Below, in pieces: positions 7,664 through 58,299 of a stretch of 64,000 nt of DNA; within the stretch, counting starts at the first letter, position 1; each line of letters begins with the position of its first letter. The position numbers were made by a program, and so were the translations under genes. The notes under the pieces are model-generated. The model saw nothing but the letters and a program-made list of their open reading frames with translations, was not told the DNA's origin and did not search any database. Source of the DNA: a virus; the IMG/VR virus record IMGVR_UViG_3300044631_002422, positions 62,001 to 126,000 of that record; one strand, given 5' to 3'.

Positions 7664-8722
7664 TTGAATCATATCAAACTGATAGCTCCTATCAATAGTC
7701 TTGGATATGGGGTAGCTGGATACAATTTATTCAAAGAGTTATATCAACTTCATCCATCCACTGCCCTTTATCCTATTTCTCAGCCAGAGTTTGTAGACGA
7801 ATACGTTCAGACAGGAATGAATAATAGGTCTGCAAATTTCCCAAATTCTCCATGCGTTAAAATCTGGCATCAAAATGATGTACATTCTTTTATTGGGAAA
7901 GGTTTACATGTGGGTTTTCCCATTTTTGAACTTACTGAGTTTTCCAACGAAGAAAAACTTAGCATGTCGCATTGTGACAAGCTTTTTGTTTGCTCAGAAT
8001 GGGCTAAAGATGTACTTTACAACCAAAGGGGATGGAGTTCTCCTGCCGTTCATGTAGTTCCACTTGGCGTTGATTCAGATGTTTTTCAGCCATGTTTATC
8101 CAGTAGAAAAACAACAGTATTTTTTAACTGTGGAAAATGGGAAAAACGTAAAGGTCACGATATTCTTTTGGAGTGCTTCAATTATGCGTTCGGGCCAAAC
8201 GATAATGTAGAACTTTGGATGATGTGTGATAACCCATTTATTGGGCAAAACAACGAAAAATGGATGAATCTATACAAAAATTCACCGCTTGGACACAAGA
8301 TTAGATTTATTCCAAGGCAAAAAACTCACAAAGATGTGTATAATATCATGAAGCAAACAGATTGCGGTGTTTTTCCAGCTAGAGCAGAAGGTTGGAATCT
8401 GGAGTTACTAGAAATGATGTCTTGCGGTAAACAGGTAATAGCCACAAACTATTCAGCGCACACAGAATTTTGTAACAATAATAATTGTCATTTAGTTGAC
8501 CCAGAAGGTTTCGAGCCAGCTTTTGATGGAGTATTTTTTTCAGGATCTTACGGAGAATGGGCAAGTCTGCAAAAAAAATCTAAAGAACAAGTAATTAGTT
8601 ATATGCGAACCATACATAAACAAAAACAAGAAGGTTCCCACAAATTAAATACTAAAGGCATTGATACTTCAATTCAATTTAGTTGGCAAAATTCAGTACA
8701 GGAGTTATTAAATGGACTCTAG
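7664..8722 (+). CDS. GT4-family glycosyltransferase
   Basis: The only workable start is TTG 7664, since an in-frame stop lies at 7652. The 352-residue protein is a GT-B glycosyltransferase. It has an N-terminal loop (PINSLGYGVAGYNL), a central VPLGVDSDVFQP hinge, a FFNCGKWEKRKGHDILLE nucleotide-site strand, and the C-terminal ExxE region of GT4 (PARAEGWNLELLEMMSCGKQVIAT). It is predicted to use an NDP-sugar in the cytoplasm. It overlaps the protease gene by 11 nt and sits far from the main glycosylation cluster. Confidence 0.75.
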   Translation: MNHIKLIAPINSLGYGVAGYNLFKELYQLHPSTALYPISQPEFVDEYVQTGMNNRSANFPNSPCVKIWHQNDVHSFIGKGLHVGFPIFELTEFSNEEKLSMSHCDKLFVCSEWAKDVLYNQRGWSSPAVHVVPLGVDSDVFQPCLSSRKTTVFFNCGKWEKRKGHDILLECFNYAFGPNDNVELWMMCDNPFIGQNNEKWMNLYKNSPLGHKIRFIPRQKTHKDVYNIMKQTDCGVFPARAEGWNLELLEMMSCGKQVIATNYSAHTEFCNNNNCHLVDPEGFEPAFDGVFFSGSYGEWASLQKKSKEQVISYMRTIHKQKQEGSHKLNTKGIDTSIQFSWQNSVQELLNGL

Positions 8723-9635: not shown

Positions 9636-10054
9636 TGAATATTCAGCAAAGAGCCATAATAGGCGCGATAATTATTGCAGCTTTTGTTTTTTTTACAAAT
9701 CATGATAAAATTTCAAATTCCGCCTTGACAAATGATGAAATAACTAATATAATAACACAGACAGAAAAGGCTTTTAATGAAGCGGAATCTAAAATTCTAA
9801 AGAATAATCCAAAGCCTGACGATAATAAACCAGTCGGCCCAGATCCAGATGCAGCAAAATGTATTTGCAAAGGAACCGGAAAAATAGTACAAGGAGACGG
9901 ACATATTTCGCCATGTCCATACCATAGCAGCGGAGAATCTTCGCAGGTAATAGATGGAGCTTGTGATAATTGTGGAAACATAAATTCTAACATTCTGATA
10001 ACCAAATCAGATTATACTAGAAAAGATGTTTTAAATAGTGTGTTTGGTTATTAA
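9635..10054 (+). CDS. membrane-anchored protein with DnaJ-like CxCxGxG knuckle
   Basis: The 139-residue product has an N-terminal membrane segment (about 8-22, IIGAIIIAAFVFF). A soluble part contains CICKGTGK (about 76-83), a CPYH pair and CDNCGN. CxCxGxG plus a second Cys pair resembles one zinc module of DnaJ, though only part of that domain is present. It may bind zinc in the periplasm or cytosol. A perfect consensus promoter lies inside its coding region at 9725-9753. Function unknown. Confidence 0.5.
   Translation: MNIQQRAIIGAIIIAAFVFFTNHDKISNSALTNDEITNIITQTEKAFNEAESKILKNNPKPDDNKPVGPDPDAAKCICKGTGKIVQGDGHISPCPYHSSGESSQVIDGACDNCGNINSNILITKSDYTRKDVLNSVFGY
9725..9753 (+). promoter_or_regulatory. 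consensus sigma70 promoter inside a gene
   Basis: TTGACA (9725-9730), 17-bp spacer, TATAAT (9748-9753): both hexamers are perfect. It would drive the small-membrane-gene run from 10078 onward. It lies within coding sequence, so chance cannot be excluded. Confidence 0.45.
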
Positions 10055-11311: not shown

Positions 11312-11669
11312 AATAACCCTAATTGTAATAGAAACAATTCCTTATTTTAGACAAGGTATACCTCCAACGAAAATTTTAGTTGACAAAAATGGAAAGTTTC
11401 CTAGTGGATATATCTCAACAAAAACAGTTGAAGATACAATAAAAGAAATACTATCAAATCACACATCATTGTCTCCAGACTTTCTTTGCCCAACTATCAG
11501 CAAACTTTTTCACGAAAAAGGCTCTGATGAGTGTGAAGCAATTTACACATGCGTTATCCAAAATGGAATCATCGGCACAAAAAATAATTCTAAAATGCTA
11601 TCAATTGAGGAAATAAACATAGATGAGCGATATACAACACCAATCATCGCAGTCCCCAGATCAATTTGA
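11301..11669 (+). CDS. hypothetical protein, weakly Nudix-like
   Basis: The 122-residue product contains KILVDKNGKFPSGYISTKTVEDTIKEIL (about 24-51). Its layout (P-[SA]-G-x-[IL] then E..x..E) recalls the start of a Nudix box, but the REx2EExGU core is not intact. At best it is a catalytically dead Nudix-fold relative. It overlaps the next gene by 47 nt in another frame. Confidence 0.45.
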   Translation: MKTKITLIVIETIPYFRQGIPPTKILVDKNGKFPSGYISTKTVEDTIKEILSNHTSLSPDFLCPTISKLFHEKGSDECEAIYTCVIQNGIIGTKNNSKMLSIEEINIDERYTTPIIAVPRSI

Positions 11670-11982
11670 AGAAGGCAGTAACAACGAAAATATTTCTGCG
11701 CAGTTGACTATTACTGTTGACAATCAGGGTTTTATATCCTATAATTGCGACTGGACACCGGGAGAAAACGGAATCGTTGGCTTGGCTTCTATTTTTTACA
11801 GATTACTTTTAGCTAATTTTAGCGAAGAAATTCTTCTAGAAATTAAACAGCAGTGCGTATCAAATGATAGCGAAGCTGATTATATCGCAATAATTAATTT
11901 GATCAATAGTTATGATTCAAAATTAAACAAAAACGATGATAATCAAGTAGTTATAGCTCCCGATCAAGTTTACCGAATATAA
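11623..11982 (+). CDS. hypothetical acidic protein
   Basis: The 119-residue product has a Gln/Ser/Asn-rich start (MSDIQHQSSQSPDQFEEGS) and then a compact part (LTITVDNQGFISYNCDW, IVGLASIFYRLLLANF). It starts inside the previous gene. A perfect TTGACA-N17-TATAAT promoter lies within it at 11717. No family recognised. Confidence 0.5.
   Translation: MSDIQHQSSQSPDQFEEGSNNENISAQLTITVDNQGFISYNCDWTPGENGIVGLASIFYRLLLANFSEEILLEIKQQCVSNDSEADYIAIINLINSYDSKLNKNDDNQVVIAPDQVYRI
11717..11745 (+). promoter_or_regulatory. consensus sigma70 promoter inside a gene
   Basis: TTGACA (11717-11722), 17-bp spacer, TATAAT (11740-11745), both hexamers perfect. Downstream lie the gene at 11996 and the sigma factor at 12627, so it could be their early promoter. 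Confidence 0.5.
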
Positions 11983-11995
11983 CTGGAGAAGGTTT

Positions 11996-12634
11996 ATGGC
12001 AAGCAAAAAAATAGTCTGGAAAAGCTGGAATGCTGTTGCAGAAGAATACATAAACTCATGCACGGAAGAACTAAACAAAATAGAAGAAGAATTGAATAAC
12101 ATGTCTGGAGAAGACGGTTTAATGGGAACCGGAACGCCAATATTTCTTAATTCTGAAAAGTTTAGTGGAATGCATACTCCATTTGGAGTTTTTCCTATCG
12201 ATTCTCCATTCAAGCCATCAGACCGATGGGATTGCTGGATTGGAACAACAAATTTTAGCATCACTCAATCAATAAACAAAACGCTAAAAGAAAATATTGA
12301 TGGAATTGAGGCTTTGAAAATAATGGGAAGGTATTCTTTTTGTGTAGGAATACCTTGCACATTCGACTTTCAGGATGTAAGATTAGAAATCGAAAAGAAG
12401 CTTTGCGTTTTCACCGAGAAGGAGGTAATGACAGACGAAGTAACGGAAACGGTTGCTTTGATGAAAGAACAGCTAAAACATAACAAATATTGGTCTATTT
12501 TAGTTGCTTCTACGGGTAAATTGGATTATGTTGTTTCTGACAATTTTGATCAGAAATACGTGGATGGTTTGAATCAGTTAGTAGAGTTAAAACAAAAAAT
12601 TGGTGGAATAATTTTAAGGGGCGAAGATGGATAA
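11996..12634 (+). CDS. conserved hypothetical protein upstream of sigma gene
   Basis: The 212-residue product has a charged helical start. A central part follows with RWDCWIGTTNFSIT, IDGIEALKIMGRYSF and FDFQDVRLEIEKKL, and then a helical C-terminus. The W.G.TNF.IT...DGVE.L...GRY pattern looks like a conserved phage protein family without assigned role. GGAGAAGG precedes the ATG. It overlaps the sigma gene by 8 nt, so the two are probably co-expressed. Confidence 0.55.
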   Translation: MASKKIVWKSWNAVAEEYINSCTEELNKIEEELNNMSGEDGLMGTGTPIFLNSEKFSGMHTPFGVFPIDSPFKPSDRWDCWIGTTNFSITQSINKTLKENIDGIEALKIMGRYSFCVGIPCTFDFQDVRLEIEKKLCVFTEKEVMTDEVTETVALMKEQLKHNKYWSILVASTGKLDYVVSDNFDQKYVDGLNQLVELKQKIGGIILRGEDG

Positions 12635-13100
12635 TATTAATCAAGAATTTGAAGCAAAGTGGAACGATTCTGATGTCAAAAGTATAATGAACAAGATATC
12701 TAACAAATATAGGAATAATATCGACATAGACGATATAGAGTCTATAAAAATGAATACTCTTTGGAACTGTATAAAGAAGTTTGACGAGTCGAAGGGTACA
12801 AAATTTACTTCCTACTTGTTTCAACAGCTTACTTACGCTTTCAAAAATAAAATCAAAAGTAAACGCAACGAATTTAACTTTGAAAATATTGAAAAACAGG
12901 ATGTTAATTACCAAGATAAGCTTGAGGTTATTGATATACTGAATAGTCTTGACGATGAAACAACTCAAATTTTGCAACAAAAATTTTACCAAAATATGAC
13001 CATGAAAGAAATTGGAAGAACCAATGGTTATTCTCGGGAAACTGCCCGTAGAAAGTTCAAAAATGCTATTGCGGAATGTAAAAACTTGCATAAATCTTGA
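12627..13100 (+). CDS. sigma-70-family RNA polymerase sigma factor
   Basis: The 157-residue protein has the two-domain layout of small alternative sigma factors. Region 2 (about 8-83) contains SIKMNTLWNCIKKFDESKGTKFTSYLFQQL, matching the core-binding and -10-reading helices. Region 4 (about 112-155) contains TTQILQQKF..NMTMKEIGRTNGYSRETARRKFKNAI, the -35 helix-turn-helix. Regions 1 and 3 are absent. It would redirect host RNA polymerase to phage promoters. The GTGTATAGTA motif begins 9 bases after its stop. Confidence 0.85.
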   Translation: MDNINQEFEAKWNDSDVKSIMNKISNKYRNNIDIDDIESIKMNTLWNCIKKFDESKGTKFTSYLFQQLTYAFKNKIKSKRNEFNFENIEKQDVNYQDKLEVIDILNSLDDETTQILQQKFYQNMTMKEIGRTNGYSRETARRKFKNAIAECKNLHKS

Positions 13101-13108
13101 TTTTAATT

Positions 13109-13118
13109 GTGTATAGTA
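13109..13118 (+). promoter_or_regulatory. candidate late promoter, motif GYGTATARTA
   Basis: GTGTATAGTA in the 101-base gap between the sigma gene and a virion-like gene. No convincing -35 hexamer sits at 15-19 bp. The same decamer pattern occurs at 14323, 21391 and (minus strand) 58265. Confidence 0.5.
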
Positions 13119-13130
13119 GTTTAGGAATAG

Positions 13131-13196
13131 GATCTCCTTTTGGATAACTGGGAAATAAAGTTTTTTATGTTTATTTTAATTATATAATCGGAGATC
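13131..13196 (+). promoter_or_regulatory. leader able to mask its ribosome-binding site
   Basis: GATCTCC (13131-13137) is complementary to GGAGATC (13190-13196), which contains the Shine-Dalgarno of the gene at 13202. If transcription starts near 13124, the leader could fold over 52 bases and hide the ribosome site. Seen by pairing only. Confidence 0.35.
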
Positions 13197-13201
13197 GAAC
13201 T

Positions 13202-13882
13202 ATGGCTGTGCAACCAAAATCTAGCTATTTGAGAAATACTGGCGGCGGCGCTTTTACTTCTCAACGTCAAGGCGGAACTCTTTACGCTAACGGCTCAACG
13301 GGGTCTGTCATCACCAAGGCATTTTTAGTTAAGGATGCTGTTGATGATGTAGTCAAATCTTATGGTGTTGTTCTTAGGGCTTATCCGGGATCAAGCGGAA
13401 TGTACGGAACTCAGAAAATCGTTTCTGGTGGCGCTTTCGCTTATTTTGAAGCTGGTAAGTACATTATTAGAACAATCAGCACTACTATTGCTGGTGTTGC
13501 GTCTACTAAGCTTCTTATTCCCGGCTCAGACAATGGAAAGCGTAATGCTATTCATCAGTTTATCCATGACTTTGGCGCTCGATTGCTCACTAAATGGCGA
13601 GCAAATGAGTTCTCTTGGCTTGGTGTATTTGATAATGGCAGCAAGATCAAGCGTCGTTACAACTGGGTTGATGCCGCTGGTACAGCAGCATCGAAACCTG
13701 TTACCGCTACCAATCTTGATATGATTAATCCAGTTGGTGGTGCTACTGCTCGAAAGAGCGATAGCGCTGCTAATCCAACCCGCGCAATTCCGGGTGAATT
13801 AGTTATGAAGGTTGACTTTGTAACAACAAACATTTCTAGCGGCGGAGACTTCTTCAACTATAAGCCTATCACAGGTATGTAG
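13202..13882 (+). CDS. virion-like protein (probable head or decoration protein)
   Basis: The 226-residue product is Gly/Ala/Ser-rich with many beta-prone stretches (GGGAFTSQRQGGTLYANG, SGMYGTQKIVSGGAFAYF, TTIAGVASTKLLIPG), no Cys and a basic bias. That composition is typical of abundant phage virion proteins. Codon use looks GC-richer than its neighbours (many GCT, GGC, CGT), as expected for a highly expressed gene. It is isolated among non-structural genes, has its own motif promoter and a structured leader. Exact role unknown. Confidence 0.55.
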   Translation: MAVQPKSSYLRNTGGGAFTSQRQGGTLYANGSTGSVITKAFLVKDAVDDVVKSYGVVLRAYPGSSGMYGTQKIVSGGAFAYFEAGKYIIRTISTTIAGVASTKLLIPGSDNGKRNAIHQFIHDFGARLLTKWRANEFSWLGVFDNGSKIKRRYNWVDAAGTAASKPVTATNLDMINPVGGATARKSDSAANPTRAIPGELVMKVDFVTTNISSGGDFFNYKPITGM

Positions 13883-14302: not shown

Positions 14303-14332
14303 TTGATTTTTGGTCTGGAAAGGCGTATAATA
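14303..14332 (+). promoter_or_regulatory. promoter of nrdAB
   Basis: TTGATT (14303-14308), 17-bp spacer, TATAAT (14326-14331), so it fits host sigma70. The -10 is also embedded in GCGTATAATA (14323-14332), the shared motif, so it may answer to both sigma factors. ATG follows at 14370. Confidence 0.65.
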
Positions 14333-21379: not shown

Positions 21380-21390
21380 CAATAAAAAAT

Positions 21391-21400
21391 GCGTATAGTA
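21391..21400 (+). promoter_or_regulatory. candidate late promoter, motif GYGTATARTA
   Basis: GCGTATAGTA 37 bases before ATG 21437 of a virion-like gene. Upstream TTAATT at 16 bp could serve as a weak -35. Part of the four-copy motif set. Confidence 0.5.
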
Positions 21401-25027: not shown

Positions 25028-25436
25028 TGCTGCGCAATACATTGCCGAGCTTGTATGTATAAGAAAATCGGAAAAGGATAACAAAGGAAGTTTAGCTTAT
25101 AAGTTTTGGAATCAAACAGAAAGCTACGAAATACAAATTCGTGTAGCCAATAAACTAATAAATAAGTACGGAGAAAGAGCCGTGCTTCATTATTTAAATA
25201 GCCCTAGCGGATCGAATGTTTATTCGCTTGGGTTTTTGCATAAAAGTAAGAATTTTGTTTTACCGTTAGATTTTGTGAAAAAGGGTATTGAAAATTCTAA
25301 GAAGATAACAGATGCCGAAGACGCAAAACCAAAAAAGATAGTAGAACAACCAACAGGCGAATACAAATCAAAACAATCATTACCAGATAAAAAAAGTTTA
25401 TTTTTCAAATTGAGGAAAGCAGATGGCAGTAACTAA
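24966..25436 (+). CDS. conserved phage protein upstream of recA
   Basis: The 156-residue product has PCSAAQYIAELVCIRKSEKD near the start and YLNSPSGSNVYSLGFLHKSKNFVLPLDFV in the middle, then a Lys-rich linker. It starts 62 nt inside the previous gene and overlaps recA by 14 nt, so it is tightly linked to the recombinase and may assist replication or recombination. No domain is recognised. Confidence 0.55.
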   Translation: MTQKKQNTKKFSSISTGQPCSAAQYIAELVCIRKSEKDNKGSLAYKFWNQTESYEIQIRVANKLINKYGERAVLHYLNSPSGSNVYSLGFLHKSKNFVLPLDFVKKGIENSKKITDAEDAKPKKIVEQPTGEYKSKQSLPDKKSLFFKLRKADGSN

Positions 25437-27525
25437 AATACCTGATTATCTTAAAAAGTCAGCAAAAGATTATGGACAGATAATTAAAAGTGGTACAGAA
25501 GTATTAAAAGAAAAAAGCAGTTATGAAATTATTTCTGTGGGTCCAGCAATTGATATTGCTCTTGGAGGAGGAATAAAAGAAGGTAGTTGGGTTACTTTAA
25601 CCGGCGATCCTAAGAGCGGAAAAGATCAGCCACTGACATCTACAGTTTATACACCAGATGGTCCTAAAACAATGGGATCATTAAAAATTGGAGATTTGGT
25701 TTGTACTCCAGATGGCGACTTCGCGAAAATAAACGGTATTTATCCACAGGGATTAAAAGATGTTTATAGAGTTACATTTAATGATGGAACTTTTGCGGAG
25801 TGCGGGATAGACCACTTATGGAAAGTATGCAAAAATTATCACGGAAGAAATGACGAATGGGTAGTTTTACCATTGAGACAGATAATAGAAGAAGGCTTAT
25901 TTTACAGCGATAGAGCAAAGTGGAAAATTCCTATATGTGAACCTGTTTATTTCGGCTGTAAAAATCTTGAAATAGATCCGTATATACTGGGGTGCTTAAT
26001 TGGCGATGGTGGGTTGTCACAAGGAACTCCTATTATTACCACATCAGATAATGAAATTTTAGAAGCTTTTAAATATTATGCAAAAAATAATGGCTTAGAA
26101 ATTCATCATAGATCAAGATATGATTATTCTATTGTTGGATATGAAAAAAATGTTAATAATTTAACTAATAAGTTAAGAACATTAAATCTTATGGGTAAAA
26201 ACTCTCATACAAAATTTATACCACAAAACTATCTTTATTCATCTATTAATGATAGATTTGAATTAATTCGTGGGCTGATGGATACTGACGGATATAATGA
26301 CAATGGTAAGTCTGCTGAATACAGCACTGTGTCATACTTATTAAGTATTCATGTGGCAGAGTTATTGCGTTCGCTTGGGTATATGGTAAAAACAAAAGAA
26401 AGAATGACAAAATGCAATGGTCAAGAATTTAAATCTTTTAGACTTTATATATCAGGCAATGATGTAAATAAGCTTTTTAAGCTTAGTCGTAAAATTTTCT
26501 ATTCAAAAAGAAAAAAACCAAAATTATTCAAAACTATAAAGAAGGTTGAAGTTGTTAGAAAAGAAGAAACTCAATGTATCTTTATTAACCACCAAGACCA
26601 TCTTTATTTAACTGATAGTTTTAATGTTACTCACAATACAACTACAGCAATGCAGATAGCCGCTAATTGCCAAAAGCTTGGAAGAAACATAATTTATATT
26701 GACGCAGAAGGAAGATTCAAGGATATGAATTTTCAAGTGGACGGACTAGATCCTGAAAAGATGCTTATTATGGCTCCAGAAGACAAACCTATTCCAGCTG
26801 AGAAGTTTCTTGAATGGGCTTATATGATGATGAGTCACTCTGACAATTATGGGGCAGTATTGATTATTGATTCTATATCGTCGCTAATACCAGAAAAAGA
26901 ACTTGATGGAGATTTCACTGCTGGCCGCGCTGGATTACCAAAGGTTCTTTCTGTATTCACGAAGAAGGTTGGTCAGTTACTACCGAGGCAACGCGGTCTT
27001 GTTATTGCAATAACTCATTACATTGCGAATACATCCGGTTTTGGTAAAGCTAAAATGGCTGATGGTGGAAATAAAATTCAATATCAAGCTGACACAAGAA
27101 TGGAAATTGCTGGCGGCGGAGAAAATACCCCGGCAGTTAAATTTTGGGAAGATGATGAAGGTAAACGAGTTGGTCAGGTAGTTAACTGGAAAATTATTTG
27201 TTCATCTATGGGACCACCGGGAGGACAGGTACAGAGTTATATCAAGTACGGCCACGGGATTGACCGAACGCAGGAAATTTTAATGCTTGCTTTAGATCTC
27301 GGTTTAATAGATAAATCCGGCGCTTGGTTTACTTGTTCTTTTATTCAACTTTATAAAGATTTAGCAAAACAAATTTTTCCAGATATAAATGTTGAAAATC
27401 AAGAAGAGTTGTTTTCAGTAAAAGGTTTTAAGTTTCAGGGGCAAAATAAACTATATGATTTTTTGAAATCTCATCCAGTTCTTGTTGATACCCTAGAAAA
27501 GATGATAAAGGAAAACTTAACATGA
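25423..27525 (+). CDS. recA: RecA/UvsX-type recombinase precursor containing an intein
   Basis: The 700-residue precursor should splice to a 362-residue recombinase. The N-extein (1-67) ends in the P-loop GDPKSGK. The C-extein from residue 406 resumes TTTAMQIAA, so the insert splits Walker A exactly. Walker B is VLIIDSIS, and IDAEGRF, QRGLVIAITHY and the DNA-loop region follow. It would pair DNA strands for recombination-dependent replication and repair. Because the intein breaks the ATP site, the unspliced protein should be inactive, making splicing obligatory. The last codons overlap the next gene. Confidence 0.95.
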   Translation: MAVTKIPDYLKKSAKDYGQIIKSGTEVLKEKSSYEIISVGPAIDIALGGGIKEGSWVTLTGDPKSGKDQPLTSTVYTPDGPKTMGSLKIGDLVCTPDGDFAKINGIYPQGLKDVYRVTFNDGTFAECGIDHLWKVCKNYHGRNDEWVVLPLRQIIEEGLFYSDRAKWKIPICEPVYFGCKNLEIDPYILGCLIGDGGLSQGTPIITTSDNEILEAFKYYAKNNGLEIHHRSRYDYSIVGYEKNVNNLTNKLRTLNLMGKNSHTKFIPQNYLYSSINDRFELIRGLMDTDGYNDNGKSAEYSTVSYLLSIHVAELLRSLGYMVKTKERMTKCNGQEFKSFRLYISGNDVNKLFKLSRKIFYSKRKKPKLFKTIKKVEVVRKEETQCIFINHQDHLYLTDSFNVTHNTTTAMQIAANCQKLGRNIIYIDAEGRFKDMNFQVDGLDPEKMLIMAPEDKPIPAEKFLEWAYMMMSHSDNYGAVLIIDSISSLIPEKELDGDFTAGRAGLPKVLSVFTKKVGQLLPRQRGLVIAITHYIANTSGFGKAKMADGGNKIQYQADTRMEIAGGGENTPAVKFWEDDEGKRVGQVVNWKIICSSMGPPGGQVQSYIKYGHGIDRTQEILMLALDLGLIDKSGAWFTCSFIQLYKDLAKQIFPDINVENQEELFSVKGFKFQGQNKLYDFLKSHPVLVDTLEKMIKENLT
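25624..26637 (+). mobile_element. class 3-like intein with LAGLIDADG endonuclease in recA
   Basis: Intein of 338 residues, precursor residues 68-405. Position 1 is Asp (DQPLTSTVYTPDG), not Cys or Ser. The class 3 triad is present: Trp66 in DHLW (block B), Cys318 in ETQCIF (block F) and Thr336 in VTHN (block G), ending His-Asn before Thr+1. A LAGLIDADG homing endonuclease is visible as ILGCLIGDGG (121-130) and LIRGLMDTDG (214-223), with acidic residues kept in both. It is probably an active homing element targeting the recA P-loop. Confidence 0.93.
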
Positions 27526-34031: not shown

Positions 34032-34779
34032 AATAGTTCTTTTAACTGAGTTTTATAAGTCAAAATTCGAAGAAAGAAACAAAGAGTTGCTGGACTCTTT
34101 GCAAAGAAATATTGATTGTGAACATATCAAAAAAATTGTTTTGTTTTATGAAAATAGTCTAGACGAATATCCAGATATAGCATTCAGCCCAAAGATTGAA
34201 ATTGCTTATACAAAATCAAGAATGAAGTTTGCAGACTATTTTAATTACTACAATAGTAACCTATCTGGACATATTTGCATAATTGCCAACAGTGATATCT
34301 ACTTTGATGATTCAATAAAACATATTCACAACATCAGAGAAAATGAATTTTTATGTATAACCAGATGGAATCGAAATGAGCTTCAGGGACATGACGAATA
34401 TAGTCAAGATGTGTGGGTTTTTAGAAAACTAATACCGCAAAAAATGGTTGATTGTTCAGGTTTTTACCTTGGCAAACAGCAATGCGATAATAGAATATCT
34501 TTTGTGGCGATGAAGAATGGATTTGATTTAATTAATCCGTGCCATTTAGTCAAATGTCAACATCTACATAAAGACCCAGATAAAATCACTTACAACAAAA
34601 AAGAGAACTTTAAAAATTTACTATATTTGTCAACGGTTAAACCGTCTGATAAAATTGAATATACCGAGAATAATGTTTGTTCATATTGGGCAGATTCTGG
34701 TGGAACTAGGTATTGCGGATCATGGTATGTTAACTTTTGCAGGAATGAATTAAATGACTTGGAATCCAATCAATTGTAA
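34003..34779 (+). CDS. glycosyltransferase-like protein (TTG start)
   Basis: TTG 34003 is preceded by AAGGAC at good spacing and overlaps the nuclease gene by 29 nt. The 258-residue product starts with a GT-A-like strand (VKIVLLTEFYKS) and has a central IIANSDIYFDDSI segment with an Asp pair placed as a DxD-like metal site. The rest is unassigned. A second possible start, ATA 34033 behind GGAGG, would remove ten residues. It is wedged between nuclease and polymerase genes. Confidence 0.55.
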   Translation: MDTTKLPEVKIVLLTEFYKSKFEERNKELLDSLQRNIDCEHIKKIVLFYENSLDEYPDIAFSPKIEIAYTKSRMKFADYFNYYNSNLSGHICIIANSDIYFDDSIKHIHNIRENEFLCITRWNRNELQGHDEYSQDVWVFRKLIPQKMVDCSGFYLGKQQCDNRISFVAMKNGFDLINPCHLVKCQHLHKDPDKITYNKKENFKNLLYLSTVKPSDKIEYTENNVCSYWADSGGTRYCGSWYVNFCRNELNDLESNQL

Positions 34780-36331
34780 AACACATTTTAGCTTGCAGCA
34801 CGGTTTTTGCAAACCTGATAAACTTTCTAAAAAATGCGCTGATTATGGTTACACATCTTGCGGAATCGCAGATTTTGGAACCTTGTCTGGTGCAGTTGAC
34901 TTTCATCAAAATTGCACTAAATATGGTATCAAGCCAATAATTGGGTGCGAATTTGATGGATACATTCTTTATGCTAAAAACAAAAACGGATGGTTTGACT
35001 TGGTTAAATATGTATCAAACCAAACACTGGATGTTTTAAAAGAAATAGCAAAAAATGGAAATGTACTTTGTGTAACACCATCTGTAAACGGTTTTGCTAA
35101 TCTATTTAAATCAAACCATATTCAACTAGATTATCCAAGTGAAGCTATCTATTATGTGGAAAAAAATGATGCAGATTGTCATAGAATTATGCTTTGTGGT
35201 AAGCTAAAAACAACACTAAAGAAAATTAAATTACTGGAAGTAAACGAGTACAGCCAGTTTTTTGATGATAATGACAGATGGTATTTACCATCCAATGATG
35301 AAATTCTAGACAGGTCTAAAAATATCGCTAAAATAGTTGACGCTTGCGAAGCTTACGAGCTTGCTGGACCTCCTATGCTTCCTGCTTTTGAATGTCCAAC
35401 TGGCTATGATGAAGACGAGTATTTGACTGAACTTTGTAGAAGTGGCTGGAAAAATAAATTAGTTCCATTCAAAAAAATATCAACAGAAGAACAAAAGAGT
35501 ATTTACGCAGAAAGAGTAAAGCATGAACTTAAGGTTATATTCAAGGCTAAACTTTCTGGTTATTTCTTGATTGTTCAAGATATCATTCGATGGGTTAAAT
35601 CAAAAGGTTGGCTTGCTGGTCCGGGACGAGGCAGTGCCGCAGGATGCCTTATTTCTTATCTACTTGATATAACTGAAGTAGATCCAATAGAATATGATTT
35701 GATCTTCGAAAGGTTTTATAATGAAGGAAGAAACACCGATGGTAACGTGGCTATTCCAGATATTGATATGGATATACCAGCCGAACACCGCGACGAAGTT
35801 ATTGATTATATCAAACAAAAATATGGAGCGTCTAACGTATCTCAAATGATAACATTTGGAAGACTGCAAGGCAGAGCGGCCATAAAAGAAGTTCTTAGAA
35901 TCAATGAGGCTGTGTCATTCGCAGAAATGAATGCTATAACAGATAGTATTCCTGACGAAGCTAAAATTTCTGACCAGTTAGAGCTTATGGAAGAAAAGTC
36001 AATCATCAAGTGGGCGTTAGAAAATGAACCAGATAATTTAAGGAATTGGTGCTTCTATAATGACAATGAAAAGCTTGATGGTCCTTTGGCGAATTTGTTT
36101 GAACAAGCTATAAAAATAGAAGGAACAAATAAGTCTCAAGGTAAACACCCTGCTGGTGTTATTATATCGAAACACAAGCTAAATGAAGTTTGTCCAATGA
36201 CAAGTGATAAGTCTGGAGATTCTATTGTTGCTTTTGAAATGAATGCTTTGGAATACCAAGGCCATATAAAATTTGATGTTCTGGGAATTGATTTACTTTC
36301 TAAGATAATGGAGATTTGTGAAAATGACTGA
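34754..36331 (+). CDS. dnaE: DNA polymerase III alpha, fragment 1 (PHP-like + palm)
   Basis: The 525-residue first piece of the replicative polymerase. Residues 1-70 are a reduced PHP-like domain. The polymerase core has GPGRGSAAG (289-297), and all three catalytic aspartates are here: D336 and D338 in PDIDMD and D508 in IKFDVLG. The ORF stops 17 residues after D508, where intact DnaE continues into the fingers. No intein sequence is present at this end, so it must associate non-covalently with the second polypeptide. Confidence 0.93.
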   Translation: MTWNPINCKTHFSLQHGFCKPDKLSKKCADYGYTSCGIADFGTLSGAVDFHQNCTKYGIKPIIGCEFDGYILYAKNKNGWFDLVKYVSNQTLDVLKEIAKNGNVLCVTPSVNGFANLFKSNHIQLDYPSEAIYYVEKNDADCHRIMLCGKLKTTLKKIKLLEVNEYSQFFDDNDRWYLPSNDEILDRSKNIAKIVDACEAYELAGPPMLPAFECPTGYDEDEYLTELCRSGWKNKLVPFKKISTEEQKSIYAERVKHELKVIFKAKLSGYFLIVQDIIRWVKSKGWLAGPGRGSAAGCLISYLLDITEVDPIEYDLIFERFYNEGRNTDGNVAIPDIDMDIPAEHRDEVIDYIKQKYGASNVSQMITFGRLQGRAAIKEVLRINEAVSFAEMNAITDSIPDEAKISDQLELMEEKSIIKWALENEPDNLRNWCFYNDNEKLDGPLANLFEQAIKIEGTNKSQGKHPAGVIISKHKLNEVCPMTSDKSGDSIVAFEMNALEYQGHIKFDVLGIDLLSKIMEICEND

Positions 36332-36554
36332 CAATCGAGACGTTTATAAGGCTGTAATTTTTGACGGTGCTATCATAGAATCAAACGGAGTGTCTTTGTG
36401 CAACCTTGAAGATGCTATGCGAGGAAATTCTTTTATACCGCGAGCAAAGTACCAAGTGTGGTCAGATCGGCACAAGTTTCATGAGTTGTTCTTTAGTATT
36501 GATGAAGCTGTAGAAAAATTCTTAGAACTCAAGTCTAGAAAGAATTGGAACTAA
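36324..36554 (+). CDS. conserved small protein within the dnaE gap
   Basis: Start ATG 36324 (MTDNRDVYKAVIFDGAII) overlaps dnaE fragment 1 by 8 nt. The 76-residue protein contains LCNLEDAMRGN and FHELFFSIDEAVEKFLEL, a compact alpha/beta pattern. I believe it is a conserved small phage protein but cannot name a family. It is the first of three genes in the first dnaE break. Role unknown. Confidence 0.55.
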   Translation: MTDNRDVYKAVIFDGAIIESNGVSLCNLEDAMRGNSFIPRAKYQVWSDRHKFHELFFSIDEAVEKFLELKSRKNWN

Positions 36555-36555
36555 T

Positions 36556-36978
36556 ATGGAAATAGAAGTTTCTAATGGTGAAGTAATTGACAAATTAACT
36601 ATTTTGAATATAAAGTCTGAGAAAATTAAAGATCAAGAAAAACTTGAGAATATCCATCGCGAATTGCATTTTCTAAGGATGAAGTCTACCGAGTGGTGGA
36701 GTTATTGGGAAAAAGAGATACTTCCTTTATTTGATAGTTTACTATCGGTTAATCGGCAACTTTGGGATATTGAAGATAAAATACGCGAGCTAGATAATGA
36801 GGTATTTCTACCACGTTTAGATGCTGCTATACAATCTGTATACCGTTTTTCTAAAGTTTGTGAATATATAGAGTGCGCAAGAATGGTTTATACGTTGAAT
36901 GATAAACGATCTAAAATCAAACGCGAAATCAATGAAATTACCAAGTCTGGAATAATAGAAGAAAAATCTCATTTTTAG
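36556..36978 (+). CDS. DUF6165-like protein
   Basis: The 140-residue protein starts with VSNGEVIDKLTILNIKSEKI and continues as a long helical bundle, matching the DUF6165 pattern (SxGExxDKLTIL-x-IKxE). Members are often found near glycosyltransferases, and biochemistry is unknown. It starts 1 base after the upstream stop. It lies in the dnaE gap, upstream of the exonuclease. Confidence 0.65.
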   Translation: MEIEVSNGEVIDKLTILNIKSEKIKDQEKLENIHRELHFLRMKSTEWWSYWEKEILPLFDSLLSVNRQLWDIEDKIRELDNEVFLPRLDAAIQSVYRFSKVCEYIECARMVYTLNDKRSKIKREINEITKSGIIEEKSHF

Positions 36979-36988
36979 AAAGATTTAT

Positions 36989-37675
36989 ATGAATCATCGG
37001 GATATAATCGTGTTTGATTTTGAAACGACTGGCAGGAATCCATTAAAGTGTCAACCAACACAAATTGCCGCTGTAGCTATACATGCTAGAAAGTTGACAA
37101 TACAACCCGGAGGAGTTTTTGAAAGTAATATACGTTGCATAGTAGATGACGAAAAGGCTATAGCGGCTGGTTTTGACCCAGTAGAAGAAGGCGCTCTTGA
37201 AGTTACTAGAAAAACAAGAGATCAAATATCTAAAGGACCATCGCCAAAAGTAGTATGGCAAAAGTTCACCCAGTTTTGCGAAAAATTTAACTTCAACAAG
37301 ACCTCATTTTCTGCCCCAATAGCGGCTGGTTATAATATCAATAGTTATGATATGCCGATTGTACAAAGAATGTGTGAAATGTATGGTCCTGTAGATGAAA
37401 AAACTGGCCGTCAAAAAATATTCAATCCTATCTTTTCAATGGATCTTATGCAGCACATTTACTGCTGGTTTGAAAACAATGCCGATGTTAAAGGTTACAG
37501 CATGGACTATCTAAGAGACTATCTTGGAATGTCAAGCGAAAAATCACACGATGCATTGCAGGACGTTAAAGATACAGCTAATATACTAATAAGGTTTCTG
37601 GTTATGCAAAGAAACCTTTCGAAGAAAATTAAATTTGAGAAAGCTTTTGCGAATGGCGATCTTCACATAAAATAG
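36989..37675 (+). CDS. DnaQ-like DEDDh 3'-5' exonuclease
   Basis: The 228-residue enzyme has the DEDD motifs in order: FDFETTG (D, E), NINSYDMPIV (D), and SHDALQDVKDTA (His and D five apart, DEDDh type). DNA polymerase III epsilon and phage proofreading exonucleases share this fold. It lies between the two halves of dnaE, so it is the natural candidate for the proofreading partner of this split polymerase. The phage alpha subunit has a degenerate PHP domain, which strengthens the need for it. Confidence 0.88.
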   Translation: MNHRDIIVFDFETTGRNPLKCQPTQIAAVAIHARKLTIQPGGVFESNIRCIVDDEKAIAAGFDPVEEGALEVTRKTRDQISKGPSPKVVWQKFTQFCEKFNFNKTSFSAPIAAGYNINSYDMPIVQRMCEMYGPVDEKTGRQKIFNPIFSMDLMQHIYCWFENNADVKGYSMDYLRDYLGMSSEKSHDALQDVKDTANILIRFLVMQRNLSKKIKFEKAFANGDLHIK

Positions 37676-37683
37676 GAATCCGA

Positions 37684-38502
37684 ATGTTTGATATTAATAA
37701 TTTTGACGACTCCAAAGTTTGGGACTTGATTTGCGAAGGAGATACTAAAGGTATTTTTCAGCTTGAATCAAATCTTGGTAGGTATTGGGCAAAAGAAACT
37801 AAGCCGCGCAATATAAAAGAATTAGCGGCTTTGATTAGTCTTATTCGTCCCGGAACTCTGCTTGCTAGAGATGCAAATGGTAAAAGCATGACTCAGGTTT
37901 ATGCTGATCGTAAGAATGGTAAACCCAATTCGCCGGTAGAATATCTGCACGATTCTTTGGAGCCAATACTCAAAGAAACATACGGCGTTTTGGTTTATCA
38001 AGAACAATCTATGATGATCGCGCAAAAACTGGCAGGTTTCGATTTGAAAGAAGCTGACGCACTCAGAAAGGCTATTGGAAAAAAGAAAGCCGATCTCATG
38101 GAGAAAGTAAAGAAAGCTTTTCTAGAAGGCGCGGCTAGTCAAGGAATCATTACTAAGGAAATTGCAGAGGAATTGTTTTCTTGGATTGAAAAATCTAACC
38201 GTTATGCATTCAATAAATGCTTGTCTCCCAAAACTATTGTAATCACAGAAAATGGAGAAAAGTGTTTAGATGAATTAAATATAGGCGATAAAGTTCTTGC
38301 TCCTAAAAATTTGAACGAAGATGAATTTGTTGAAGTTATAGATATAATTGATAATGGAATAAAAGAAGTTGTTGAAATAACTATGGAAGATGGTAAAAAA
38401 ATTATATGCACATTAGACCATAAATTCCTTTGTTCCGATGGAAAAGTTCATAAATTGATAGAAATTTTAGAGCAGAATTTGGAAATAATGTGTATAGATT
38501 AG
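37684..38502 (+). CDS. dnaE: DNA polymerase III alpha, fragment 2 (fingers) fused to split-intein N-half
   Basis: Residues 1-178 continue the polymerase where fragment 1 stops: DTKGIFQLES, LISLIRPGTLLARD, YGVLVYQEQSMMIAQKLAGF and ADALRKAIGKKK are DnaE fingers motifs. The extein ends NRYAFNK. From C179 the chain is an intein N-terminal half (CLSPKTIVITENGEK, LNIGDKVLAP, TLDHKFLCS) ending at residue 272. AGGAAT precedes ATG 37684. Splicing with the product at 39401 would make a 519-residue polypeptide. Confidence 0.92.
   Translation: MFDINNFDDSKVWDLICEGDTKGIFQLESNLGRYWAKETKPRNIKELAALISLIRPGTLLARDANGKSMTQVYADRKNGKPNSPVEYLHDSLEPILKETYGVLVYQEQSMMIAQKLAGFDLKEADALRKAIGKKKADLMEKVKKAFLEGAASQGIITKEIAEELFSWIEKSNRYAFNKCLSPKTIVITENGEKCLDELNIGDKVLAPKNLNEDEFVEVIDIIDNGIKEVVEITMEDGKKIICTLDHKFLCSDGKVHKLIEILEQNLEIMCID
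38218..38499 (+). mobile_element. split intein, N-terminal half (IntN)
   Basis: About 94 residues beginning with Cys1 (CLSPKTIV). Block A is followed by NIGDKV and block B TLDHKF. The inserted site is after AFNK of the DnaE motif YAFNK-SHAISYA. It partners the C-half at 39401. Confidence 0.9.
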
Positions 38503-38531
38503 TATGAGATTTATTAACAGGAGTCATACTA

Positions 38532-39437
38532 ATGAGTATAAAAAAAGAAGATTGGCATATATGCAAAATGTGCAATAAAAAAATTAAAGATCTATCTAAA
38601 GAGCTTGGCGGCAGCGGTATATACAGCACAGAAGTATTTGCCAAACATTTAAATCAATTTCATAAAATTACTCCAGAAGATTACTTTGAAAAAATATCGA
38701 ATAGACCAAAATGTTCATGTGGAATATGTGACTCAAATGTCGATTTAACTTGGAAAGGCAAAACCAATTTCAACTGGAGACAATATAAATGCGGAAGAAA
38801 TGAAGGTGTTAAAAAATGGAGCGAAGAAGCAAAGAAAACTAGATCCGGTAAAAATAATCCAATGTATAATAAAATACCTTGGAATAAAGACAAAACCAAA
38901 GATAACTCAGAATCTCTAAAAATTGTTTCTCAAAAAATGAGTGGACGAAGCGTGTCTGAAGAGATTAGGCAAAAACAATCAAAATCAGCTAAATCTCGTT
39001 TGAGTCATGGTCATACAGGCTTTAAACATTCCGAAGAAAGTAAAGATAAAATGCGCCAATCGACTTTATCAATGATAAAGAATGGAAGATTTAAACACAC
39101 AAAAACCAAACCGCATTTAGAATTTGCCAAGATATTGTCTGAATTAAATATTGCTTTTCAAGAAGAATATGTTATTAAATATTGGTCATTTGATTTTTTC
39201 TTGACTGATTTCCATGTATTAATAGAGGTAGATGGAGATTATTTTCATTCAAATCCAAAGTTTTATAACAAACCAAAAACCAAAACTCAAAAAATAAACT
39301 CATACAGAGATCAAAAGAAAAATGATTTTTGCGAGTCTAATGGCTACGCTTTGATTAGAATATGGGAAGACGATGTTATCAACAACAAAGAGAAAATATT
39401 ATGCAGCCTAAAAGAATTGTTCATGTTCGGACAATAG
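38532..39437 (+). CDS. Vsr-like (EDxHD) homing endonuclease with NUMOD3 repeats
   Basis: The 301-residue free-standing endonuclease lies between split-intein halves. It has N-terminal Cys pairs (CKMCNKK, CSCGIC), a NUMOD3-type repeat around SGKNNPMYNKIPWNK and another around HTGFKHSEESKDKMRQS. The C-terminal catalytic domain has FDFFLTDFHVLIEVDGDYFH and IRIWEDDVI. The order zinc knuckles, NUMOD3 and Vsr fold matches the EDxHD homing family exemplified by I-Bth0305I. AGGAG precedes the ATG. It overlaps the C-half gene by 37 nt. Confidence 0.85.
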   Translation: MSIKKEDWHICKMCNKKIKDLSKELGGSGIYSTEVFAKHLNQFHKITPEDYFEKISNRPKCSCGICDSNVDLTWKGKTNFNWRQYKCGRNEGVKKWSEEAKKTRSGKNNPMYNKIPWNKDKTKDNSESLKIVSQKMSGRSVSEEIRQKQSKSAKSRLSHGHTGFKHSEESKDKMRQSTLSMIKNGRFKHTKTKPHLEFAKILSELNIAFQEEYVIKYWSFDFFLTDFHVLIEVDGDYFHSNPKFYNKPKTKTQKINSYRDQKKNDFCESNGYALIRIWEDDVINNKEKILCSLKELFMFGQ

Positions 39438-39514
39438 GAAATATTCCAACAATGGATATTGAAGTCAATAGCGATTCTCATATTTTTTATGGAGATGGTA
39501 TCGTTACATCAAAT
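39401..39514 (+). mobile_element. split intein, C-terminal half (IntC)
   Basis: 38 residues with block F (MDIEVNSDSHIF) and block G (DGIVTSN). The last residue is the needed Asn and the +1 residue is Ser. The penultimate His common in block G is Ser here. Confidence 0.88.
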
Positions 39515-40540
39515 TCACATGCTATTTCATATGCAATCAATGCTTATTGGTCCGCTTATTGTAAAACCTACAAACGTAAGAAGTTTTATGAAAAATATCT
39601 CAATAGGTCAGATAGAAAGCCTGATCCAGATATAGAGAAGAAACAATTAATAATGGATGCAAAGCGGTGCGAGATAGAAGTTTTACCGCCCAGATTACAA
39701 CATTTACACAAGGACTTTACTAGGCATCCTAGCAAAGATATTATTTACTATGGATTGTCACATGTTAAACATGTTGCTGAAAAGGAGTGTGACAAACTCA
39801 TTGGTTTATCAGGTGTTGAAAAGTATAACTGGATGGATTGCTTGATCAATATCGTTCATGGTTTAAATATTAATAAAAGCGCCACCGTAGCGCTTATTTC
39901 TGTTGGTGCGTTTAATGGAATCAACAATACAACAAGTAGACAAAAGATGTTGTACGAGTTTGATAGCTGGAAGCATCTTACTGCCAAAGAACAAGAAGCA
40001 ATTGCAAATGCCTATAATTCAGGTTCGCAAAAACCAAAAGATTTAACGCAGGCAATAGAGTGGCTTATTACAAATACCAAGATTAACTCCAGAAGATTGC
40101 AATCGGTAGAAGATATAAAAAATTCTCTAAAAAATCCTTTCTATGATATCGACGATAAACCAGAAACAATTGCCGCAGATGAAGAAAAATATATGAGTTG
40201 CTCCTTAACATGTAGTAAAGTTGATGGTTTAGACCTAAATACAGTGATAAATATGTGTCAAGATGTGTCTAGCCATTCTATAATAGGTAAGGTAACTCTT
40301 GCTGTAGAAATTGTGCGCATAAAGATTGTAAAGACTAAAAAGGGTAAAACTCCCGGTCAGGAAATGGCTTTTCTGACTGTCGAGGATGGAAGTGGATCTT
40401 TAGACTCAATAACCATTTTCCCAGAAGCTTACGATAAATACAAAGACTTACTAGTGGAAAATAATACTGTTCTTTTGATTGGCGAGATATTTAAAAAAGA
40501 TAAAGAAGCTATCATCGTCAATCAAGTATCGCAAATTTGA
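39401..40540 (+). CDS. dnaE: split-intein C-half fused to DNA polymerase III alpha, fragment 3
   Basis: Start ATG 39401 (MQPKRIVHVRTI) lies 37 nt inside the endonuclease gene. Residues 1-38 are an intein C-half (MDIEVNSDSHIFYGDGIVTSN), ending Ser-Asn before Ser+1. The extein SHAISYAINAYWSAYCK then continues DnaE exactly where fragment 2 stopped, through the helix-hairpin region to a C-terminal OB fold (SIIGKVTLAVEIV...DGSGSLDSITIFPE). The extein is 341 residues. No clear clamp-binding motif is visible at the C-terminus. Confidence 0.92.
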   Translation: MQPKRIVHVRTIGNIPTMDIEVNSDSHIFYGDGIVTSNSHAISYAINAYWSAYCKTYKRKKFYEKYLNRSDRKPDPDIEKKQLIMDAKRCEIEVLPPRLQHLHKDFTRHPSKDIIYYGLSHVKHVAEKECDKLIGLSGVEKYNWMDCLINIVHGLNINKSATVALISVGAFNGINNTTSRQKMLYEFDSWKHLTAKEQEAIANAYNSGSQKPKDLTQAIEWLITNTKINSRRLQSVEDIKNSLKNPFYDIDDKPETIAADEEKYMSCSLTCSKVDGLDLNTVINMCQDVSSHSIIGKVTLAVEIVRIKIVKTKKGKTPGQEMAFLTVEDGSGSLDSITIFPEAYDKYKDLLVENNTVLLIGEIFKKDKEAIIVNQVSQI

Positions 40541-57261: not shown

Positions 57262-58236
57262 TTAATAGTATTCTAGCGACACATACAAACCATAAGCTTC
57301 TTTTGCGCCAGTTGAAAGAGGTGTGGCAGAAAGAGCAACTGACCAATTATGATGAGTTGAAACACCAGTTCCTCCATATGTTTTGATTCTATTACCAACA
57401 GTAGAACCATCACCAAAACTAAAACCAAATACAGTTGATTGATTTGTTGTATCAGTGAGATATTGCGTCCATTTCGGCCAAACCATACCGGTCCCACTAA
57501 TGGTTTGACTAACATGTAAATTCTTTTGGCCAGATCCGGGACTATCCAAAAGTGGTACAATTATACCAGTTCCGCCAACAGTGTCATAACTACCCGCAAC
57601 AGCAGCAGCAGAAAGACGAGAATCGCCATTAACTCTACTGTCTGAGCTAGTTCCGTTACGGAATACAGCACCAACACTATTTGTATAGTAGTTTTTCCCA
57701 CCGGTAATCAAAGCTGCTGGCCAAGGTTCTCCCCACCACCATAAGTCACCACTGCCTTGAGCAGCAGAATTAAGACCGTTGTCAGCACCTTGGTTATTGA
57801 ATGTACTTCCATTAAAATTGACAATCTCGGCAACCTTGGTATTGACACCACTGGCTGGATAATTGACATTAGCCCGATCATAAATTCTCAATTGACAATT
57901 CTGCACTCTAACTGCCGAGGTATGACCAAACTCAATACCGAGCGTACCATACATACTTCTAACGCCGCTTAAGCCGGTTGTACTTGGCGTTCCCGGAACA
58001 GAGTCAAGAACACATCGCCCACTAGGATAAGAATTTGCTACATATTTAATGTTTGAGGTAGCGTCAGCGATCACTGTAGCATCACCATTAGCAACATATG
58101 TAGTATCTTGGTACGCTCCAATTTGTACCGAAGATCCTTGAGTAGTACCAAAAAACGCAAGGCCAGAACCAGACAATGTTCTGACGCTAGGCGTTCCGTT
58201 GTTATTACCAAGTATTTGAAATTGTATTTCTGCCAT
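57262..58236 (-). CDS. virion structural protein
   Basis: The 324-residue minus-strand product is Gly/Ser/Thr/Asn-rich and almost free of charged helices, with long beta runs (LSGSGLAFFGTTQGSSVQIG, LRIYDRANVNYPASG, WSVALSATPLSTGAKEAYG). Its codon choice is GC-richer than most neighbours, as for abundant structural proteins. AGGAG precedes ATG 58236 and motif GTGTATAATA lies upstream. It is the promoter-distal gene of the minus-strand block and has its own promoter. Likely tail or head decoration; exact role unknown. Confidence 0.6.
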   Translation of the reverse strand: MAEIQFQILGNNNGTPSVRTLSGSGLAFFGTTQGSSVQIGAYQDTTYVANGDATVIADATSNIKYVANSYPSGRCVLDSVPGTPSTTGLSGVRSMYGTLGIEFGHTSAVRVQNCQLRIYDRANVNYPASGVNTKVAEIVNFNGSTFNNQGADNGLNSAAQGSGDLWWWGEPWPAALITGGKNYYTNSVGAVFRNGTSSDSRVNGDSRLSAAAVAGSYDTVGGTGIIVPLLDSPGSGQKNLHVSQTISGTGMVWPKWTQYLTDTTNQSTVFGFSFGDGSTVGNRIKTYGGTGVSTHHNWSVALSATPLSTGAKEAYGLYVSLEYY

Positions 58237-58264: not shown

Positions 58265-58274
58265 TATTATACAC
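58265..58274 (-). promoter_or_regulatory. candidate late promoter, motif GYGTATARTA (minus strand)
   Basis: Read on the minus strand the decamer is GTGTATAATA, 29 bases before ATG 58236. TTGATA lies 14 bp upstream, too close for a normal -35. Fourth copy of the shared motif. Confidence 0.55.
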
Positions 58275-58299
58275 ATAATATCGAATATCAATTAAAATT

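What the first reader, a model, noticed from the sequence alone, without database searches (positions are those of the whole stretch)
12627..13118. Phage sigma factor and a shared GYGTATARTA motif before virion-like genes and nrdA
The decamers GTGTATAGTA (13109), GCGTATAATA (14323), GCGTATAGTA (21391) and, on the minus strand, GTGTATAATA (58265) all lie in short intergenic gaps 29-84 bases before genes. Three precede virion-like genes. One lies 9 bases after the stop of the sigma-70-like gene. At least two have no normal -35. I infer a phage late promoter class.
Basis: partly seen in the sequence, partly recalled or inferred. Interest (0 to 1): 0.65.

Follow-up and report, generated by a model that had tools for sequence, protein, structure and literature searches.

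The report
Late-gene promoter switch in phages
A large uncultured phage and dozens of its relatives carry the same eight-letter start signal, TG(T/C)GTATA, in front of their late genes; it is probably read by one of two sigma factors that the phage itself makes, so it is a known kind of switch with new letters and two candidate readers.

Summary
The late promoter class is real, but the stated decamer is not its unit. The window is 62001-126000 of a 148-kb virus record. An unbiased k-mer test in gaps upstream of the late, minus-strand block picks TGTGTATA (6 found, 0.025 expected). In 10 related genomes TGYGTATA lies 77 times in gaps (7% of the DNA) and 45 times in coding sequence; its reverse lies 0 and 51 times. 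Sites have no -35 element and show a T-purine step 7 bases downstream, like a transcription start. Orthologous sites are kept while flanks diverge. The nrdA site belongs to another class: TTGATT-N17-TATAAT, with a perfect TTGACA-N17-TATAAT in a relative. A fifth window copy (8336), not listed, lies inside a glycosyltransferase gene. The sigma gene is real (regions 2 and 4) and lies behind conserved sigma70-type promoters. A second sigma gene, outside the window at 25145-25666, lacks a recognisable region 4, sits directly behind a TGTGTATA site and is conserved. Which sigma reads the motif is open; I favour sigma2 for the single-element promoters, started by sigma1. Known precedents: phiEco32 gp36 (tAATGTAtA) and T4 gp55 (TATAAATA).

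The parts
13108..13115 (+). Late promoter -10 element TGTGTATA, before the 226-aa gene at 13202
   Evidence: TGYGTATA at the same place behind sigma1 in 32 of 43 diverse relatives
21390..21397 (+). Late promoter -10 element TGCGTATA, before the tail-tube-like gene at 21437
   Evidence: TGCGTATA in L018 and G003, TGTGTATA in G006 at the orthologous place; weak Phage_tube_2 match of the gene, below cut-off
58268..58275 (-). Late promoter -10 element TGTGTATA, before the 324-aa gene 57262-58236, first gene of the minus-strand late block as called
   Evidence: TGTGTATA before the ortholog in seven genomes at 61-100% protein identity; variant GTGTATTATAATA in G002
38489..38496 (+). Possible late promoter TGTGTATA at the 3' end of a DNA polymerase gene piece, 35 bases before an endonuclease-like gene at 38532
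   Evidence: Exact word with TR at the start-like offset; overlaps coding sequence, so uncertain
12627..13100 (+). sigma1, 157 aa, sigma70 regions 2 and 4
   Evidence: Pfam Sigma70_r2 30.0 bits and Sigma70_r4 36.1 bits, both over cut-off; model mean pLDDT 83, nearest solved folds ECF sigmas
11717..11745 (+). sigma70-type promoter TTGACA-N17-TATAAT inside the upstream gene 11623-11982, about 910 bases before sigma1
   Evidence: 12 of 12; 27 of 30 relatives have such a site within 3 kb upstream of sigma1, 2.5 expected
9725..9753 (+). second sigma70-type promoter TTGACA-N17-TATAAT, about 2.9 kb before sigma1
   Evidence: 12 of 12; at about -2900 in several relatives
14303..14331 (+). nrdA promoter, sigma70-type TTGATT-N17-TATAAT, not of the late class
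   Evidence: 10 of 12; TTGACA-N17-TATAAT before nrdA in G001, GAGTATAAT in L018
14258..14293 (+). terminator-like hairpin between the 103-aa gene and nrdA
   Evidence: 14-pair stem then T run
13116..13201 (+). conserved leader of the 226-aa gene with five GGA triplets

Best explanation
TGYGTATA is the -10 element of this phage lineage's late promoters; there is no -35 element, and transcription starts about 8 bases downstream. It is read by the host RNA polymerase core carrying a phage-made sigma. Proposed order: host sigma70 reads the early region (TTGACA-N16-TATAAT) and the promoters before sigma1. Sigma1 (regions 2 and 4) then fires the operon that encodes sigma2, whose promoter has TGTGTATA and, in one large group, a conserved TATAAT 16 bases further on. 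Sigma2 (no recognisable region 4) reads the single-element promoters before the virion genes and keeps its own operon on. Shown by sequence: the motif, its gap and strand bias, its conservation, the start-like TR step, both sigma genes and the promoter-like sites in front of them. Inferred: that these are promoters, and which sigma reads which. My split for the single-element sites: sigma2 alone 0.45, both 0.25, sigma1 alone 0.2, neither 0.1.
For: Top 8-mer in late gaps without prior pattern and strongly enriched in relatives taken singly. 77 gap and 45 coding copies with gaps 6.6% of the DNA; reversed control 0 and 51. Late-strand gaps 52 of 124, other gaps 19 of 292; sigma70-type 0 of 124 and 44 of 292. 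TR at a fixed offset in 58% of 59 non-redundant sites. Ribosome-binding sites starting 7-8 bases behind the word in five sites. Conserved at orthologous places. Two sigma genes, both present in all five records of at least 138 kb. Sigma1 behind sigma70-type promoters, sigma2 behind TGTGTATA. Precedent: phiEco32 gp36, single element tAATGTAtA, start 6-8 bases downstream, sigma without region 4 (PMC8948821). No beta-subunit family of a multi-subunit phage polymerase found.
Against: No transcript data. 45 copies lie in coding sequence and may be chance. About half of late-strand gaps lack the exact word; some are short gaps inside operons or carry variants. The assignment to sigma2 rests on domain make-up only, and sigma2's model has C-terminal helices that might be a degenerate region 4. 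The TATAAT behind the word at the sigma2 operon is unexplained.
Confidence: 0.72

Rival explanations
1. Sigma1 alone reads all TGYGTATA promoters; sigma2 has another role or another target.
For: Sigma1 is driven by sigma70-type promoters, so it can be made first, while sigma2 itself sits behind the word and needs something to start it. A late site directly follows sigma1 in most relatives.
Against: Sigma1 has a well conserved region 4, yet no -35 is conserved at the sites. No second motif for sigma2 was found in late gaps.
Confidence: 0.2
2. The host primary sigma reads the word as a -35-less promoter, helped by a phage activator; the phage sigmas do something else.
For: TATA-like core; T4 middle promoters work through an activator (general knowledge).
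Against: Early genes of the same phage carry near-perfect TTGACA/TATAAT, the two classes never share a gap, and the late word lacks the AAT of the -10 box. No activator candidate was identified.
Confidence: 0.08
3. The word is an RNA-level signal (processing or stability) or an effect of AT-rich gaps, not a promoter.
For: Gaps are AT-rich; the decamer was chosen by eye.
Against: Second-order Markov expectation in gaps still gives p of 1e-8 to 1e-11 in several genomes taken singly. The reversed word, of the same composition, occurs 0 times in gaps. Fixed TR step and ribosome-binding sites starting 7-8 bases behind the word fit initiation.
Confidence: 0.03

Closest known systems
phiEco32 gp36 sigma and its middle/late promoters (tAATGTAtA)
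   Same: Single short element, no -35, start 6-8 bases downstream, phage sigma on host core, structural genes, early genes left to host sigma70 (PMC8948821)
   Different: Different letters (TGYGTATA), two sigmas instead of one; gp36 does not align convincingly to either sigma
T4 gp55 late sigma and its late promoters (TATAAATA)
   Same: Single -10-like element before virion genes; sigma2 resembles gp55 in having region 2 and no recognisable region 4
   Different: Different letters; no T4-type sliding clamp found, with T4 itself positive in the same search; gp55 aligns only over a short stretch; different phrog families
SPO1-type cascade of two successive phage sigmas
   Same: Two phage sigma steps after host sigma (general knowledge, not tested here)
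   Different: SPO1 middle and late promoters are bipartite with other letters (general knowledge); no sequence comparison was made
Salmonella phage 7-11 gp47 sigma
   Same: Phage sigma with a region 4, as sigma1 (PMC8948821)
   Different: Its promoters are bipartite, GTAAtg-(16)-aCTA; here no -35 is conserved at most sites

Membership tests
Phage-sigma-dependent late promoter class (general kind) | Shared element in gaps before late genes, absent from early promoters | tested here: met
Phage-sigma-dependent late promoter class (general kind) | A phage-encoded sigma that directs polymerase to the element | not testable with these tools
   Two sigma genes are present; reading of the element needs transcription assays
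phiEco32 gp36-type system | Element tAATGTAtA | tested here: not met
   Consensus is TGYGTATA; GTATA shared, AAT replaced by TGY
phiEco32 gp36-type system | Sigma homologous to gp36 | tested here: not met
   Best profile matches are short and weak, probability 2.7 and 0.4
T4-type late transcription | gp45-type sliding clamp | tested here: not met
   PF02916 not found in five near-complete records; T4 control 2.9e-35
T4-type late transcription | gp55 homolog | tested here: inconclusive
   Short alignments, E 0.0054 for sigma1 and 0.00027 for sigma2; no shared phrog family
Sigma70 superfamily (sigma1) | Regions 2 and 4 | tested here: met
   Both over Pfam cut-off
Sigma70 superfamily (sigma2) | Region 2 over cut-off; region 4 | tested here: inconclusive
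   Region 2 28.6 bits over cut-off 24, no region 4 match; the model has C-terminal helices that could be a degenerate region 4

The most novel reading that the evidence does not exclude
A two-sigma relay in which one DNA word serves twice: sigma1, with region 4, reads TGTGTATA as the upstream half of a bipartite promoter (TGTGTATA-N16-TATAAT) that switches on the sigma2 operon, and sigma2, without region 4, then reads the same word alone as a -10 at the late promoters and at its own operon.
Probability: 0.15. Interest if true: 0.7.

Novelty: new member of a known kind. Interest (0 to 1): 0.48.

Why it matters
It gives the likely transcription programme of a phage lineage that has many relatives among uncultured virus contigs (284 stretches with a related capsid protein) and only a very distant capsid match among named phages. 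The word can be used to mark late genes and operon starts in otherwise unannotated genomes. Two conserved sigmas with different domain make-up, and one motif, make a clean test of how region 4 shapes promoter choice.

Tried and rejected
Taking GYGTATARTA as the unit: rejected, RTA carries little information and the 5' T was missed. nrdA as a late gene: rejected. The copy at 8336 as a promoter: rejected, it lies in a glycosyltransferase gene. T4-type clamp: not found. Phage multi-subunit polymerase: not found by its beta-subunit family. A conserved -35: looked for at fixed offsets and as k-mers upstream; only a weak A preference at -25 and A/T runs. Telling sigma1 from sigma2 by presence and absence: all near-complete records have both. 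Naming sigma1 through close relatives in phage records: none. Rfam for the leader of the 226-aa gene: no match there at E up to 5. Structure search with sigma2: region 2 folds only, no clear whole match. Paper search for TGTGTATA with phage and promoter: none in the library held, which lacks most subscription journals.

Full report
What was checked. The four decamers are at the stated places and exceed chance (5 found, 0.58 expected), but a fifth copy at 8336 was missed and lies inside a glycosyltransferase gene. The window is 62001-126000 of a 148,313-base virus record, which I read in full. Genes were called with a script of my own, so gap borders are approximate.

Layout. Small early-type genes lie on the plus strand at about 26-60 kb, DNA metabolism on the plus strand at about 60-119 kb, and a mostly minus-strand block with a capsid protein, a tail-fibre-like protein and very long ORFs at 119-148 kb and 1-26 kb. 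I call this last block late by its content; no expression data exist.

Finding the unit. Every sense-strand copy in the block lies in a gap. Nine relatives, fetched through the capsid and sigma1, show the same word. Pooled over ten genomes, TGYGTATA lies 77 times in gaps, which are 6.6% of the DNA, and 45 times in coding sequence. The reversed word lies 0 and 51 times. Late-strand gaps hold it in 52 of 124 cases, other gaps in 19 of 292. Sigma70-type promoters show the opposite split, 0 of 124 and 44 of 292, and no gap has both. Several of the 19 are orthologs of the sites before the 226-aa and tail-tube-like genes, which sit on the early strand.

Shape. In 59 non-redundant sites the word is preceded by A/T-rich bases and followed, at offsets 6 and 7, by T-purine in 58% of cases; other offsets reach at most 31%. 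No -35 is conserved. Five sites have the ribosome-binding site starting 7-8 bases behind the word, which leaves room only for a start directly behind it, so there the word must be the -10.

Orthologous sites. The site behind sigma1 is TGYGTATA in 32 of 43 diverse relatives. The tail-tube-like site is TGCGTATA in this genome, L018 and G003 and TGTGTATA in G006. The site before the 324-aa gene is TGTGTATA in seven genomes and a variant in the eighth. The nrdA site is different: TTGATT-N17-TATAAT here, TTGACA-N17-TATAAT in G001, and GAGTATAAT in L018, so its GYG is not kept. It follows a terminator-like hairpin. It is a sigma70-type promoter.

Early class. About twenty near-perfect TTGACA-N16-TATAAT promoters, many with CGATA in the spacer, stand before early genes at 26-43 kb. 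The decamer at record position 30662 is one of them.

Two sigmas. Sigma1 (12627-13100) has regions 2 and 4. It stands behind TTGACA-N17-TATAAT promoters embedded in upstream genes; 27 of 30 relatives have such a site within 3 kb upstream, 2.5 expected. Those 30 include near-duplicates. Sigma2 (record 25145-25666, outside the window) has region 2 and no region 4 match. It is the second gene behind a TGTGTATA site (record 25962). Relatives keep it at 46-72% identity. All five records of at least 138 kb have both sigmas. In 29 of 69 sigma2 loci the best match is spaced exactly 16 bases, mostly TGTGTATA-N16-TATAAT; in a second group the elements are arranged differently.

Mechanism. The gap, strand, start-step and conservation evidence makes a late promoter class very likely (about 0.93). 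That a phage sigma reads it is likely (about 0.85). Which one is open. A promoter without a -35 fits a sigma without region 4, as in phiEco32 (PMC8948821). But sigma2 itself sits behind the word, so something must read it first, and sigma1, behind sigma70-type promoters, is the natural candidate; in this genome and two close relatives a sigma70-type site (TTGACC-N17/18-TATAAC/T) also stands upstream of the sigma2 operon. I therefore propose sigma70, then sigma1, then sigma2.

Compared with the known. It works like phiEco32 gp36 promoters (tAATGTAtA) and T4 late promoters (TATAAATA; PMC1524935). It is not shown to be a member of either: neither sigma aligns convincingly to gp36 or gp55, and no T4-type clamp is found, with T4 positive in the same search. 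It is a new member of a known kind, with an unresolved two-sigma arrangement.

Noticed in passing
13116-13201, and the same leader in 35 relatives: The leader between the late site and the 226-aa gene has exactly five GGA triplets, the ribosome-binding site included, in 35 of 36 non-redundant relatives (six in the other), in a fixed layout. In many of them the box GGATCTC pairs with the ribosome-binding site. No Rfam match. It may be a translational control element of CsrA type or with a phage protein; untested.
   Followed up: partly
34754-40540: The DNA polymerase III alpha gene is in pieces (34754-36331, 37684-38502, 39452-40540). The middle piece ends in a Hint/intein-like stretch and an endonuclease-like gene (38532-39437) stands before the next piece, as in fractured genes with split inteins.
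   Followed up: no
25423-27525: RecA-like protein of 700 aa with a LAGLIDADG homing-endonuclease stretch inside, so probably an intein.
   Followed up: no
L009:15004-15065 (record 35004-35065, outside the window): Pistol ribozyme match, 47.7 bits against a gathering score of 34.5, in the early region.
   Followed up: no
record 26-43 kb (L009, L010), outside the window: About twenty near-perfect early promoters TTGACA-N16-TATAAT, many with a CGATA box in the spacer, most directly before small genes. The extra spacer box is unexplained.
   Followed up: partly
L364: The only capsid relative in bacterial genome assemblies is a contig of a Flavobacteriales metagenome bin, 84% identity. The E. coli-like early promoters do not look like those known for Bacteroidota (general knowledge), so the host stays open.
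   Followed up: no
record 25653-25919 (L009:5653-5919 -), outside the window: A small acidic 88-aa protein lies between the TGTGTATA site and sigma2, overlapping the sigma2 gene; no family match. It might be a co-activator or anti-sigma; guess only.
   Followed up: no
38489-38496: TGTGTATA at the end of a polymerase piece, 35 bases before the endonuclease-like gene, with a TR step at the usual offset; would give late expression of a mobile endonuclease.
   Followed up: no
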